Part shown: positions 13,329 to 34,397 of the stretch, piece by piece | How the letters are laid out: the number at the start of each line of letters is the position of its first letter | Numbering within the stretch: position 1 is the first letter of the stretch | Origin: Niastella vici | Lineage (GTDB): Bacteria > Bacteroidota > Bacteroidia > Chitinophagales > Chitinophagaceae | Length of the DNA: 64,000 nt | Direction: 5' to 3' | Assembly: GCF_002077945.1 (NCBI RefSeq) | Contig: NZ_LVYD01000046.1 | Location: 1-64,000, forward strand | Position numbers and translations under genes: made by a program | Notes under the pieces: model-generated | What the model was told of the DNA's origin: nothing | The model's input: only the letters and a program-made list of their open reading frames with translations | The model's database searches: none

Positions 13329-13469
13329 TTGTTTTCAGCACACTGATCTTAACGATCGTTAGCTAGTTATTTGTTGGAAAACGTTTTTTTAAAATGCTGA
13401 AATATACGCCCATAGCGGGTTTCAGGTGTAAATACCCTACTTGGGGACAGGAGAATTGATCGAAAAAAA

Positions 13470-13500
13470 TTTGTACATAAGTAATTAGTTATTATTTTTG
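13470..13500 (+). promoter_or_regulatory. Promoter of the aromatic attenuator: TTTG-N19-TATTTTTG
   Basis: TTTG at 13470-13473 and TATTTTTG at 13493-13500 are separated by 19 bp, an excellent match to the Bacteroidota consensus (TTTG, 19-21 bp, TAnnTTTG). The start site should fall at about 13504, only a few nucleotides before the leader ATG at 13506. Confidence 0.75.
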
Positions 13501-13505
13501 ACCTA

Positions 13506-13598
13506 ATGATTATCGCAAAAGCATACGGTTTCTTTTACTTTTATTTTTACTTCTACTTTACCAGTAGGCCGGGAATGCTTTTGTTGACAACAAAATAA
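13506..13598 (+). CDS. Phe/Tyr-rich leader peptide of the pheA operon
   Basis: A 30-codon open frame begins ATG ATT ATC GCA AAA GCA and ends TAA at 13596-13598. Codons 7-18 (13524-13559) read Y-G-F-F-Y-F-Y-F-Y-F-Y-F: six Phe and five Tyr in twelve codons. The rest is T-S-R-P-G-M-L-L-L-T-T-K. It lies between a good promoter and a terminator hairpin just ahead of prephenate dehydratase, and its aromatic codons overlap and follow the first RNA arm. This is the layout of an attenuation leader peptide, so charged tRNA-Phe and tRNA-Tyr levels should set operon expression. The function is inferred; the reading frame and codon run are seen directly. Confidence 0.85.
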   Translation: MIIAKAYGFFYFYFYFYFTSRPGMLLLTTK

Positions 13599-13654
13599 GA
13601 ATAAACAAAAAGATCAACATAAGAAGTCCCGGCAAAAAAGCCGGGACTTTTTTT
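13516..13654 (+). promoter_or_regulatory. Phe/Tyr transcription attenuator (three alternative pairings)
   Basis: Three mutually exclusive pairings can be read. Arm 1:2: CAAAAGCAT (13516-13524) with ATGCTTTTG (13575-13583), 9 bp perfect. Arm 2:3 (antiterminator): GCCGGGA (13568-13574) with TCCCGGC (13627-13633), 7 bp perfect. Arm 3:4 (terminator): AGTCCCGGC (13625-13633) with GCCGGGACT (13640-13648), A6 loop, followed by a T-run to 13654. A ribosome stalled on the Phe/Tyr codons covers arm 1 and frees arm 2 to pair with arm 3; without stalling the terminator forms. This logic follows the classical trp/phe/his attenuators; pairing was done by eye. Confidence 0.85.
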
Positions 13655-13716
13655 ATGTGCCATCAGTATCCCCATCCCGATAGCTATCGTGACAGGGAAG
13701 CATAAAAAAAGAATCT

Positions 13717-14616
13717 ATGAGCGACCGAAAACAACAACGGGAGATCACCGATGCAACGCCAGGTTCAAATGGCTTGCAGGGTACTGGTATCAAGGTTTCT
13801 ATTCAGGGGTATGAAGGCAGTTTTCACCAGGTAGCAGCCCGCCAGTTCTTCGGAAAAAATGTAGAAGTAATAGCCTGCGCCACCTTCCGCGATGTGATAA
13901 AAATTGCCACCAACGAAAAAGAAAGCAACGGTGGCGTTATGGCCATCGAAAACTCCATCGCCGGCAGCATTTTACCCAACTACAACCTGTTGCAAAAGAG
14001 TAGCCTCAAGATCATTGGTGAAGTTTACCTGCCTATTAAACAACACCTGTTGGTTAATCCCGGCGTTCAACTGGAAGACATTCGCGAAGTGCATTCACAC
14101 CCCATGGCCATTTTGCAATGCATTGAATACCTCGATAAATACAACTGGAAGCTGGTTGAAACGGAAGACACGGCCTTAAGCGCCAAACATGTTCACCAAC
14201 ACCGCAGCAAACACATTGCCGCCATTGCCAGCAAACTCGCCGCCGACCTCTTCGAACTCGAGGTAATAGCTCCCAACATTCACACAATGAAAAATAATTA
14301 TACCCGCTTCCTGGTTTTGCAACCCGAAGAAGTGGCGCAACCGGTGGCTGATGCCGATAAAGCATCGGTGAGTTTTATTACCGACCACTCGCGCGGCAGC
14401 CTGGCCAGGGTGTTGACCCGTATTGCCGATGGCGGTATTAACCTGAGCAAGCTGCAAAGCTTTCCCATTCCCGGCAGCGACTGGAAATACAGCTTTCATG
14501 CCGATATGGAATTTGAAACGTTGAACCAGCTCAACCAGGTAATTGAACAAATGCAACCCATTACCGAGGAGTTAAAGATATACGGAGTATATAAGAACGG
14601 TAAAAGCATTGAATAA
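13717..14616 (+). CDS. pheA: Prephenate dehydratase with ACT domain
   Basis: Converts prephenate to phenylpyruvate, the committed step of phenylalanine synthesis. The 299 residues start with about 25 non-conserved residues, then the PDT domain (26-205) with GYEGSFHQVAARQFFG, GGVMAIENSIAGSI and the catalytic TRF motif at 196-198 (NNYTRFLVL). The C-terminal ACT domain (about 218-295) has HSRGSLARVLTRIADGGINL and LSKLQSFPIPG, the region that binds phenylalanine for feedback inhibition in the family. It is the first structural gene after the attenuator, with an aminotransferase and tyrA following at short spacing. Confidence 0.95.
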   Translation: MSDRKQQREITDATPGSNGLQGTGIKVSIQGYEGSFHQVAARQFFGKNVEVIACATFRDVIKIATNEKESNGGVMAIENSIAGSILPNYNLLQKSSLKIIGEVYLPIKQHLLVNPGVQLEDIREVHSHPMAILQCIEYLDKYNWKLVETEDTALSAKHVHQHRSKHIAAIASKLAADLFELEVIAPNIHTMKNNYTRFLVLQPEEVAQPVADADKASVSFITDHSRGSLARVLTRIADGGINLSKLQSFPIPGSDWKYSFHADMEFETLNQLNQVIEQMQPITEELKIYGVYKNGKSIE

Positions 14617-15846: not shown

Positions 15847-16695
15847 ATGTTCAATACCGTTACCATTGTCGGAGTAGGATTAATCAGTGGTTCCTTTAGC
15901 CTGGCTTTAAAAGAACGGGCACTGGTTAAAAAAGTAATTGGGGTAAGCCGAACCGAAGCAAGCGCGCAGAAGGCCATAGAGCTTGGGCTTATAGATGAAG
16001 CGCTGCCCCTGGAAGAAGCGGTAAAACAGGCCGACCTCATTTACGTAGCCATTCCGGTTGATTCAACTATTGGTGTAATGCAGCAGGTGATGGACCTGGT
16101 AACCGATAAACAGATAGTGGCCGATGCGGGCAGTACCAAACATGCCCTGTGCGCTGCTTTGAACGATCATCCCATGCGCCGGCGCTTTGTGGCCACTCAC
16201 CCTATGTGGGGTACAGAGTACAGCGGTCCCGAAGCAGCCGTGCGCAATGCCTTCGCCGGCCGTTCCTGTGTGATCTGTGAAAAAGAGAAAAGTGATGCCG
16301 CTGCGGTTGCAACCGTAGAAGAGATCTATCGTCAATTGGGCATGCACCTGGTGTATATGGATGCCGACAGCCATGATATGCATACGGCCTACATCAGCCA
16401 TATATCGCACATCACTTCCTTTGCGCTGGCCAATACCGTGTTAGAAAAGGAGAAGGAAGATGATACCATTTTTGACCTGGCTGGTGGTGGTTTTGAAAGT
16501 ACGGTGCGGCTGGCAAAAAGTAACCCGGCCATGTGGGTGCCTATTTTTAAACAGAACCGCGACAATGTGCTCGATGTACTGAATGAGCACATCAGTCAGC
16601 TTAAGAAGTTTAAAGCCTGCCTGGAGAAGGAAAATTACACCTACCTGCAGGAGCTTATAGAACAGGCGAACAAGATCAAACGGATCTTAAAATAA
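15847..16695 (+). CDS. tyrA: Prephenate dehydrogenase
   Basis: Oxidatively decarboxylates prephenate to 4-hydroxyphenylpyruvate with NAD(P)+, the committed step to tyrosine. The 282 residues begin with the Rossmann motif VTIVGVGLISGSFSLALKE (5-23). The active-site region VATHPMWGTEYSGPEAA and the helical dimerisation half (DMHTAYISHISHITSFALA, FDLAGGGFEST) follow as in the family. No ACT or chorismate mutase domain is fused. It is 11 bp after the aminotransferase and should be under the Phe/Tyr attenuator. Confidence 0.94.
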   Translation: MFNTVTIVGVGLISGSFSLALKERALVKKVIGVSRTEASAQKAIELGLIDEALPLEEAVKQADLIYVAIPVDSTIGVMQQVMDLVTDKQIVADAGSTKHALCAALNDHPMRRRFVATHPMWGTEYSGPEAAVRNAFAGRSCVICEKEKSDAAAVATVEEIYRQLGMHLVYMDADSHDMHTAYISHISHITSFALANTVLEKEKEDDTIFDLAGGGFESTVRLAKSNPAMWVPIFKQNRDNVLDVLNEHISQLKKFKACLEKENYTYLQELIEQANKIKRILK

Positions 16696-33376: not shown

Positions 33377-34231
33377 TTAGATGATCATTTTCTCGATGGG
33401 CACTACCAGTATTCCCTGGGCGCCGGCGGCTTTGAGCTGTTCAATGATATCCCAGAAAGTATCTTCGCTCAGTACGCTGTGTACGCTGCTCCAGCCTTGT
33501 TCGGCCAGGGGCAGAACCGTAGGGCTTTTCATCCCGGGCAGCAGGGCGATGATCTCCTGTACTTTATCATTGGGGGCGTTCAGCAAAATGTATTTGTTGT
33601 GTTTGGCTTTTTTTACTGATCGAATGCGGAACACCAGTTTGTCAACCAGTTTTTGTTGTTCTGCGTTGAGGTCATTATTGCGGATGAGCACGGCTTGCGA
33701 CTGCAATAAGGTTTCCACTTCTTTGAGGCCGTTCATAAGCAGGGTAGAACCGCTGCTTACCAGGTCGGCCACCACATCGGCAAGGCCGATACCGGGAGCA
33801 ATTTCAACCGATCCGCTGATCTCATGGATCTCGGCCTGGATATTATTTTTTGCGAGGAATTCGTTGACAAGATAAGGATAGCTGGTGGCGATGCGTTTTC
33901 CCTGTAATGATTGCACGCCTTCGTATTGCTGGCTGCGTGGAATGGCTACCGAAAGACGGCATTTGCCAAAACCCAGTTTTTCCACGATGACTGCTTTCTT
34001 GTTTTTTTCGTACAGCACGTTTTCACCAACAATGCCAATGTCGGCCACGCCATCTTCAACATATTGCGGAATATCGTCGTCGCGCAAAAAGAAGATCTCG
34101 AGGGGGAAATTATCCGATTCGGTTTTCAGCCGGTCTTTTACATTGCGCAGGTCAATACCGCATTCTTTCAGCAGTTGTACGGAATCTTCATACAGGCGAC
34201 CCGATTTCTGAATAGCAATCCGAAGTTTCAT
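33377..34231 (-). CDS. hisG: ATP phosphoribosyltransferase, long form
   Basis: First step of histidine synthesis, joining ATP and PRPP. I chose the ATG at 34231 (284 residues, MKLRIAIQKSGRLYEDS), the family N-terminus; 36 extra in-frame codons upstream run through the attenuator hairpin and are not coding. Seen: VEDGVADIGIVGENVL, ATSYPYLVNEFLAKN, ISGSVEIAPGIGLADVVADLVSSG (in parts) and a C-terminal domain (about 210-284) ending VPIEKMII. The C-terminal domain marks the long HisG form, which binds histidine as feedback inhibitor in known cases. It heads the his run and follows the His leader. Confidence 0.95.
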   Translation of the reverse strand: MKLRIAIQKSGRLYEDSVQLLKECGIDLRNVKDRLKTESDNFPLEIFFLRDDDIPQYVEDGVADIGIVGENVLYEKNKKAVIVEKLGFGKCRLSVAIPRSQQYEGVQSLQGKRIATSYPYLVNEFLAKNNIQAEIHEISGSVEIAPGIGLADVVADLVSSGSTLLMNGLKEVETLLQSQAVLIRNNDLNAEQQKLVDKLVFRIRSVKKAKHNKYILLNAPNDKVQEIIALLPGMKSPTVLPLAEQGWSSVHSVLSEDTFWDIIEQLKAAGAQGILVVPIEKMII

Positions 34232-34281: not shown

Positions 34282-34348
34282 ATAAGGGCTTACCATGCGG
34301 TAAGCCCTTATAAATATCTGGCACTACACAAAGCACCATCGGCCTACC
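34282..34348 (-). promoter_or_regulatory. His transcription attenuator (terminator and antiterminator arms)
   Basis: On the minus strand a 13-bp stem (34299-34311 with 34282-34294), loop GCAT, forms the terminator-like hairpin AAGGGCTTACC/GGTAAGCCCTT just before hisG. Its first arm can instead pair, over 8 bp with one G-U, with GGTAGGCC at 34341-34348 (antiterminator). GATGGTG at 34334-34340 can pair with CACCATC at 34367-34373 inside the His codons (protector). The tract after the hairpin is TTATCATTTAAAA, a weak U-run, so a terminating role is less sure than for the pheA case. Confidence 0.78.
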
Positions 34349-34397
34349 TGCAGGGGTAAGTATGATGATGGTGGTGAATGTGTATGAAAATTGTCAT
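34344..34397 (-). CDS. His-rich leader peptide of the hisG operon
   Basis: A 17-codon frame from ATG at 34397 to TAG at 34344-34346 encodes M-T-I-F-I-H-I-H-H-H-H-H-T-Y-P-C-R. Six of codons 6-12 are His (CAC or CAT). It lies between a consensus-like promoter and alternative RNA hairpins ahead of hisG. This is the expected signature of a histidine attenuation leader, as known for enterobacterial hisL (which has seven consecutive His codons). Stalling on the His codons would cover the protector arm at 34367-34373. The codon content is seen directly; the regulatory action is inferred from layout. Confidence 0.85.
   Translation of the reverse strand: MTIFIHIHHHHHTYPCR

What the first reader, a model, noticed from the sequence alone, without database searches (positions are those of the whole stretch)
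13506..13716. Phe/Tyr attenuation leader ahead of pheA in a Bacteroidota-type genome
Seen directly: a promoter, a 30-codon frame with 11 Phe/Tyr codons in 12, and three mutually exclusive pairings (9, 7 and 9 bp, all perfect) ending in a T-run terminator, directly before prephenate dehydratase, an aminotransferase and prephenate dehydrogenase. Known: ribosome-stalling attenuation controls pheA, trp and his operons in proteobacteria. Inference: stalling on either Phe or Tyr codons would open the whole branch, so one leader senses both end products. The alternating Phe-Tyr codons are unusual, since enterobacterial PheL is Phe-rich only. I cannot tell whether this leader has been described.
Basis: partly seen in the sequence, partly recalled or inferred. 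Interest (0 to 1): 0.88.

Follow-up and report, generated by a model that had tools for sequence, protein, structure and literature searches.

The report
Phe/Tyr ribosome-stalling attenuator before pheA
Just before the genes that make phenylalanine and tyrosine lies a tiny gene packed with codons for those two amino acids, and its RNA can fold so that a stalled ribosome would switch the operon on; the same device sits in front of this operon in many related bacteria, and it belongs to a well-known kind of genetic switch.

Summary
The window (Chitinophagaceae by its named relatives, nearest Niastella) has a 30-codon leader ORF, MIIAKAYGFFYFYFYFYFTSRPGMLLLTTK, then a strong terminator, then pheA-aminotransferase-tyrA. 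Similar leaders precede pheA in 78 of 80 named relatives; the other two lack upstream sequence. Beyond the family, FY-rich ORFs precede pheA in 31 of 54 testable Bacteroidia genomes, against 0 of 30 genomes outside the class and 20 of 648 control stretches. All three helices pass a cognate-versus-swapped test (0 of 2000 permutations); compensatory changes support 2:3 and 3:4, not 1:2. The antiterminator is 16 bp, not 7. Mechanism: classical ribosome-mediated transcription attenuation. Simulated stalls at the first Phe or first Tyr codon leave the antiterminator free in 87 of 87 leaders, so double sensing is plausible but untested; Corynebacterium AroR (Phe-Tyr-Phe) is reported to respond to Phe only. 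Distinguishing traits: both amino acids in each of these 87 leaders, a predicted near-leaderless start, tandem copies in some genomes, and His and Ile/Val leaders in the same genome. Partly anticipated: a 2021 Flavobacterium psychrophilum paper flagged a structured pheA 5' element and leader-peptide attenuation. New member of a known kind.

The parts
13470..13500 (+). Bacteroidota sigma-A type promoter: TTTG (13470-13473), 19-base spacer, TATTTTTG (13493-13500)
   Evidence: sequence; consensus TTTG / TAnnTTTG and start site 4-5 nt after the box from PMC6847099 (passages); 76 of 87 family leaders have a full TAnnTTTG within 45 nt upstream, 4.9% of shuffles
13506..13598 (+). leader peptide ORF, 30 codons, MIIAKAYGFFYFYFYFYFTSRPGMLLLTTK, predicted 5' UTR 0-1 nt
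   Evidence: 87 family leaders distinct in ORF DNA
13524..13559 (+). Phe/Tyr run, codons 7-18 (11 of 12 are Phe or Tyr), the proposed stall site
   Evidence: both residues in each of 87 family leaders
13516..13524 (+). arm 1 (pairs with 13575-13583)
   Evidence: fold; cognate arms pair better than swapped arms; 84.5% of cells paired but covariation not clearly above shuffles
13568..13587 (+). arm 2, inside the leader ORF: pairs with arm 1 or with arm 3 (antiterminator)
   Evidence: 9 pairs with changes on both sides, 0 of 500 shuffles as many
13614..13633 (+). arm 3, including the conserved TCAACATAA stretch upstream of the terminator
13621..13654 (+). intrinsic terminator (arms 3:4), loop 13634-13639, T7 at 13648-13654
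   Evidence: a terminator in 87 of 87 distinct family leaders (that of L093 read by eye)
13717..14616 (+). pheA, prephenate dehydratase
   Evidence: PF00800
14669..15835 (+). class I/II aminotransferase
   Evidence: PF00155; follows pheA in 80 of 80 named loci
15847..16695 (+). tyrA, prephenate dehydrogenase
   Evidence: PF02153/PF20463; follows in 79 of 80 named loci, the other being short

Best explanation
A classical ribosome-mediated transcription attenuator of the pheA-aminotransferase-tyrA operon. RNA polymerase starts at or within a base or two of the leader ATG, and a ribosome loads without a Shine-Dalgarno site. If charged tRNA-Phe or tRNA-Tyr is short, the ribosome stalls in the FYFYFY run; it covers or displaces arm 1, stays short of arm 2, and arm 2 pairs with arm 3 (16-bp antiterminator), so polymerase reads through. 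If both are plentiful the ribosome runs over arm 2, arm 3 is left for arm 4, and the terminator releases the transcript near 13654. Without translation arm 1:2 forms first, which should favour termination. Shown by sequence: ORF, run, arms, terminator, conservation, coevolution. Inferred: promoter use, translation, stalling, read-through, and response to Tyr as well as Phe.
For: FY leader in 76 of 80 named relatives by scan and in L044 and L066 by reading; the other two (L061, L079) have under 50 nt upstream. Terminator a median 22 nt after the leader stop, in 87 of 87 distinct leaders (L093 by eye). Cognate arms pair better than arms swapped between species for 1:2, 2:3 and 3:4 (0 of 2000 permutations each); the 1:3 and 2:4 negative controls show no such effect. 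Compensatory counts for 2:3 and 3:4 exceed 500 of 500 shuffles on pairs changed on both sides. Concerted changes in arms 2, 3 and 4, e.g. L025, L067, L084, L081, L097. Stall simulation without pairing across the ribosome: antiterminator free at the first Phe and the first Tyr codon in 87 of 87; arm 1:2 formed in 87 of 87 nascent RNAs without ribosome. Nine of 87 leaders end early in ...FC after the run, so the run is kept as codons while arm 2 is kept as RNA. Spread: 31 of 54 other Bacteroidia, 0 of 30 outside the class, controls 20 of 648.
Against: No expression data for this organism. The 1:2 helix shows no clear excess of compensatory change on alignment A1 (84.5% paired against 83.8% shuffled; 42 to 273 of 500 shuffles reach the five measures). 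In the swap test the cognate pair beats the leader's own swapped median in only 65, 68 and 70 of 87 for 1:2, 2:3 and 3:4, and related species are not independent. One of the 16 antiterminator pairs of the window pairs in only 22% of cells in relatives. If pairing across the ribosome is allowed, the antiterminator is also the best fold with no ribosome (82 of 87), with a ribosome at the stop codon (61-73 of 87) and on arm 2 (13-14 of 87), so termination must be kinetic or rely on the ribosome as a barrier. Terminator hairpin more stable than the antiterminator in only 27 of 87. Two of 24 unnamed family genomes (G050, G058) and 23 of 54 other Bacteroidia show no such ORF at 6 of 12. The AroR precedent speaks against assuming Tyr sensing.
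Confidence: 0.88

Rival explanations
1. Same attenuator, but it effectively senses one amino acid (Phe) and the Tyr codons are spacers or minor contributors.
For: AroR of C. glutamicum has Phe-Tyr-Phe and responds to Phe limitation, not Tyr availability (PMC11802643 passage). PheA is the first gene. Phe codons outnumber Tyr codons (median 6 against 4).
Against: At least 2 Tyr codons in each of 87 distinct family leaders; at least one Tyr in 29 of 29 leaders of other families (29 of the 31 found by scan were tested); tyrA follows in 79 of 80 named loci; simulated stalls at the first Tyr codon work in 87 of 87.
Confidence: 0.3
2. A non-translational switch: T-box, riboswitch or protein-bound antiterminator, the ORF being incidental.
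For: The 2:3 and 3:4 helices alone could serve any sensor; without a ribosome the antiterminator is thermodynamically competitive.
Against: No Rfam family at its gathering score in the window; no T-box or riboswitch among the 27 matches to E 10 in the element; gaps in the run are multiples of three by eye; the last F/Y codon lies 9 nt before arm 2 in 56 of 87.
Confidence: 0.03
3. A small functional peptide or a chance aromatic-rich ORF with an unrelated terminator.
For: Leader peptides can act in trans, as reported for peTrpL (PMC7298713, passages).
Against: C-terminus changes freely, nine of 87 leaders end early in ...FC; the RNA arms coevolve.
Confidence: 0.02

Closest known systems
Enterobacterial pheA attenuator, PheL (Rfam RF01859 Phe_leader)
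   Same: Leader peptide with Phe run, exclusive helices, terminator, upstream of pheA (recalled and PMC11802643 passage). Highest-scoring of 27 weak Rfam matches to the element, full length 1-125 of 125.
   Different: 31.5 bits against a gathering score of 55, so not a member by sequence; run is mixed Phe/Tyr; operon includes tyrA; predicted near-leaderless start.
Structured 5' element upstream of pheA in Flavobacterium psychrophilum and other Flavobacteriaceae (PMC9723704; section 19 read, other passages seen)
   Same: Same phylum and gene; authors report strong clues for leader-peptide attenuation ahead of amino-acid operons and no Rfam hit for the pheA and hisG elements.
   Different: The text read gives no peptide, arms or specificity (supplements could not be opened); here codon run, helices and coevolution are given and the family is followed over Bacteroidia.
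AroR leader of Corynebacterium glutamicum (Neshat 2014, as cited in PMC11802643, passage)
   Same: Ribosome-mediated attenuator with Phe-Tyr-Phe controlling aromatic amino-acid genes.
   Different: Other phylum, short run, controls the aroF operon, reported not to respond to Tyr.
Bacteroid-trp RNA (RF01692; PMC2864571, table passage)
   Same: Predicted cis-regulatory RNA of Bacteroidetes; its name points to trp genes (inference from the name).
   Different: No match in the element up to E 10.
Sinorhizobium meliloti trpL leader (PMC7298713, passages)
   Same: Attenuator whose transcript starts at the leader ATG (leaderless).
   Different: Trp-specific, Alphaproteobacteria.

Membership tests
Ribosome-mediated transcription attenuator | short ORF rich in codons for the end product | tested here: met
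Ribosome-mediated transcription attenuator | antiterminator (2:3) exclusive with terminator (3:4) | tested here: met
   shared arm 3; compensatory changes in both, swap test
Ribosome-mediated transcription attenuator | protector helix 1:2 | tested here: inconclusive
   swap test 0 of 2000 and sliding control favourable, but no clear excess covariation on A1
Ribosome-mediated transcription attenuator | intrinsic terminator ahead of the operon for that amino acid | tested here: met
Ribosome-mediated transcription attenuator | read-through rises on starvation and depends on leader translation | not testable with these tools
   needs RNA-seq or reporter assays
Rfam Phe_leader RF01859 | score at or above the gathering threshold (55 bits) | tested here: not met
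   31.5 bits
T-box (RF00230, accession recalled) | Rfam match | tested here: not met
   no match
Bacteroid-trp RF01692 | Rfam match | tested here: not met
   no match
Flavobacteriaceae pheA 5' element (PMC9723704) | homologous sequence and structure | tested here: inconclusive

The most novel reading that the evidence does not exclude
An ancient bivalent Phe-or-Tyr attenuator, widespread in Bacteroidia, in which either amino acid alone can open the terminal branch, and which in Chitinophagaceae is decoded as a leaderless message by ribosomes that do not use Shine-Dalgarno sites. Its conservation would mean that transcription and translation are tightly timed in a phylum where I found little written about such coupling.
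Probability: 0.45. Interest if true: 0.65.

Novelty: new member of a known kind. Interest (0 to 1): 0.5.

Why it matters
If true, one leader tunes the common Phe/Tyr branch to both end products, and many Bacteroidia rely on a ribosome keeping time behind RNA polymerase. That makes transcription-translation coupling in Bacteroidota testable with a natural reporter. It would also give many genomes an annotation for an overlooked ORF and terminator, and the same genome shows sister leaders for His and Ile/Val.

Tried and rejected
The sigma-70 promoter scan finds nothing at the site; the Bacteroidota consensus does. Rfam at gathering score: no match in the window; the permissive scan of 13420-13720 lists 27 matches, all below their gathering scores. 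Other FY runs in the own genome: 9 exact matches of seven TWY codons, 4 of them overlapping in this leader; the reversed control pattern gave 16, so a bare run is not specific. Of the other five, L143 lies in a 51-codon frame with no run of six T within 140 nt behind it and the other four are not in an FY-rich ORF (flanks also looked at). RNA model R1: in the own genome the next full-length hit (E 0.005) and two weaker ones showed no amino-acid-run leader by eye; weak hits in other genomes led to the Ile/Val leaders. The first count suggested two relatives without leader (L044, L066): a script fault, the stop codon had been cut off; both have it, but they are not among the 87. The terminator for L093 was a wrong pick; the real one was set by hand from the printed sequence. 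The first stall simulation allowed pairing across the ribosome; the second forbade it, which makes its 'none on arm 2 or at the stop' true by construction. Alignment A1 left out 19 of the 87 distinct leaders (with other types of arm 2, such as VVFAKA or RRPAMLC) because arm 2 would not align; the swap and stall tests used all 87. The 30 genomes outside the class are the 30 best-scoring places, not a random draw; in 10 of them the frame is open 120 nt or more upstream of the match, so the test was repeated with 1000 nt (best ORF 4 of 12). An operon reaching to the DAHP synthase was not adopted for this window: a helicase gene with its own promoter-like box lies between.

Literature: 10 searches of the open library listed no paper on a Phe/Tyr leader in Bacteroidota that I recognised beyond the 2021 flavobacterial paper. 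Passages were seen of PMC2864571, PMC4833913, PMC2965389, PMC7366714, PMC6847099, PMC7298713 and PMC11802643; PMC7366714 mentions unvalidated sORFs reminiscent of leader peptides in B. thetaiotaomicron. PMC6429828 was seen only as a listing. The 2010 comparative study by Lopatovskaya and colleagues and the 2004 survey of proteobacterial attenuators are not held, so absence there was not checked.

Full report
What is there. The window lies in a 10-Mb genome (G000:C46) whose nearest named relatives are Niastella and Longitalea, hence Chitinophagaceae by inference. Bases 13506-13598 encode MIIAKAYGFFYFYFYFYFTSRPGMLLLTTK*. It is preceded by TTTG-N19-TATTTTTG ending five bases before the ATG and followed, 22 bases after the stop, by a terminator ending in T7 at 13654. 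pheA, an aminotransferase gene and tyrA follow. The RNA folds far better than shuffles (z -5.05).

Conservation in the family. The best 80 of 139 candidate pheA loci were kept by the search. Seventy-six of these 80 have an ORF with at least 7 Phe/Tyr in 12 codons within 700 nt upstream. Two (L044, L066) were missed because the script cut the stop codon, and have it on reading. Two (L061, L079) have under 50 nt of upstream sequence. Phe codons number 3-8 (median 6) and Tyr codons 2-6 (median 4). An RNA model built on 68 of them matches 99 of 147 family genomes at E 0.001 or better, its own members included, and the own genome at one place only. Among 24 family genomes taken from the unnamed set, own genome included, 22 reach 6 of 12; G050 and G058 do not.

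Coevolution. With all 87 leaders, arms from the same species pair better than arms swapped between species: mean -16.8 against -14.8 (1:2), -22.0 against -19.2 (2:3), -21.4 against -18.5 kcal/mol (3:4), none of 2000 permutations as good; the unneeded pairings 1:3 and 2:4 show no such effect (1895 and 1883 of 2000 permutations as good). Leader by leader, the cognate beats the own swapped median in 65, 68 and 70 of 87. Related species are not independent, so these are not strict probabilities. On alignment A1 (68 of 87 leaders) the 2:3 helix has 9 pairs changed on both sides (shuffles 3.7) and the 3:4 helix 6 (shuffles 2.3), 0 of 500 shuffles reaching either; 1:2 is not clearly above shuffles although 84.5% of cells pair against at most 58.1% when slid. 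It includes a conserved TCAACATAA stretch. Some species changed arms 2, 3 and 4 together, for example L025 (CCGGAGG / CCTCCGG / CCGGGGG) and L067 and L084 (CGGGG / CCCCG / CGGGG).

How it would work. In a simulation that folds only RNA downstream of the ribosome, a ribosome stalled at the first Phe or the first Tyr codon leaves the antiterminator free in 87 of 87 leaders; with a footprint of +11 this holds at 476 of 476 Phe and 343 of 343 Tyr positions, with +14 at 411 and 341. Nascent RNA without ribosome forms 1:2 in 87 of 87 before arm 3 exists. A ribosome on or beyond arm 2 cannot allow it, by construction. When pairing across the ribosome is permitted, the antiterminator also appears with no ribosome (82 of 87), at the stop codon (61-73 of 87) and on arm 2 (13-14 of 87), and the terminator is the stabler hairpin in only 27 of 87. 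The decision must therefore be kinetic, as in the classical model. The last Phe/Tyr codon lies 9 nt before the CCGGG of arm 2 in 56 of 87 leaders. Nine of 87 leaders stop early in ...FC after the run: the run matters as codons, arm 2 as RNA.

Start of the message. In F. johnsoniae the TAnnTTTG box of probable promoters lies 4-5 nt before the start site and 87% of their transcripts have a leader longer than 10 nt (PMC6847099, passages); leaderless messages are 5.5% in F. psychrophilum (PMC9723704, passages). Here a full TAnnTTTG lies 4-10 nt before the leader ATG in 70 of 87 (69 with TAHHTTTG), which predicts 5' UTRs of 0-6 nt, against 1 of 41 mechanically listed ORFs of 200 codons or more in the window. 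Start sites were not measured. By eye, the leaders of unnamed family f25 (L162, L165) are normally leadered, so the trait is not general.

Spread. Outside the family, 31 of 54 testable Bacteroidia genomes (55 drawn, one too short) have an ORF with at least 6 Phe/Tyr in 12 codons within 360 nt upstream of pheA, 26 have 7 or more and 16 have 8 or more; controls 20, 5 and 2 of 648. Thirty genomes of the phylum outside the class, the best-scoring ones, have none, also within 1000 nt (best 4 of 12). Tandem leaders, each with a terminator, are seen in L252 and by eye in L181, L205 and L214.

Gene order. pheA-aminotransferase-tyrA is kept in 79 of 80 named loci, the other being short; the DAHP synthase gene follows tyrA in 30, the helicase gene in 40. 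In this window the helicase gene has its own TACCTTTG, so the leader's reach beyond tyrA is unproven.

Related devices in the same genome. hisG, on the minus strand of this window, has a leader MTIFIHIHHHHHTYPCR followed by a hairpin, and a branched-chain aminotransferase gene has MQKSSINNIISVVTAIIIIVVVVIIPATHGGGV with a terminator-like hairpin by eye.

What is known. Ribosome-mediated attenuation of pheA is textbook in enterobacteria; the element scores 31.5 bits against Rfam Phe_leader, whose threshold is 55. The 2021 F. psychrophilum study reports a structured pheA 5' element shared with other Flavobacteriaceae and strong clues for leader-peptide attenuation of amino-acid operons (section read). 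C. glutamicum AroR has Phe-Tyr-Phe yet is reported to respond to Phe only (passage). Hence: new member of a known kind, with a conserved bivalent run, a predicted near-leaderless start and wide spread in Bacteroidia as its distinguishing traits.

Noticed in passing
window 34344-34397 (-), hairpin about 34282-34310, hisG domain 33620-34084 (-): A second likely attenuator in the window: leader MTIFIHIHHHHHTYPCR (six His) nine bases after TATTTTTG, followed by a strong hairpin with a weak T run, ahead of hisG and a gene that looks like hisD (recognised by eye, not searched).
   Followed up: partly
L259 (own genome G000:C45, upstream of 101191); L254; L256: Ile/Val-run leader peptides (e.g. MQKSSINNIISVVTAIIIIVVVVIIPATHGGGV) with a terminator-like hairpin directly before a branched-chain aminotransferase gene.
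   Followed up: partly
L252, L181, L205, L214: Tandem aromatic-run leaders, each with its own terminator (three of the four judged by eye), upstream of pheA.
   Followed up: partly
L177 and L215 (family f91): Short leader-like ORFs with TYFWFYP before pheA, including Trp, below the threshold used.
   Followed up: no
window 13669-13702; L002: Between terminator and pheA a palindromic stretch around CCCGATAGCTATCG has an 88% match elsewhere in the genome; by eye similar palindromes stand there in L006 and L008. Perhaps a small dispersed repeat.
   Followed up: no
window 14360-14616: The C-terminal part of PheA gives no Pfam ACT hit at E 0.001 and the usual ESRP motif (recalled) reads LQSFP; feedback inhibition by Phe may be altered.
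   Followed up: no
genomes without match: 51 of 119 related genomes have no PheA match at E 1e-20; possible auxotrophs or divergent enzymes.
   Followed up: no
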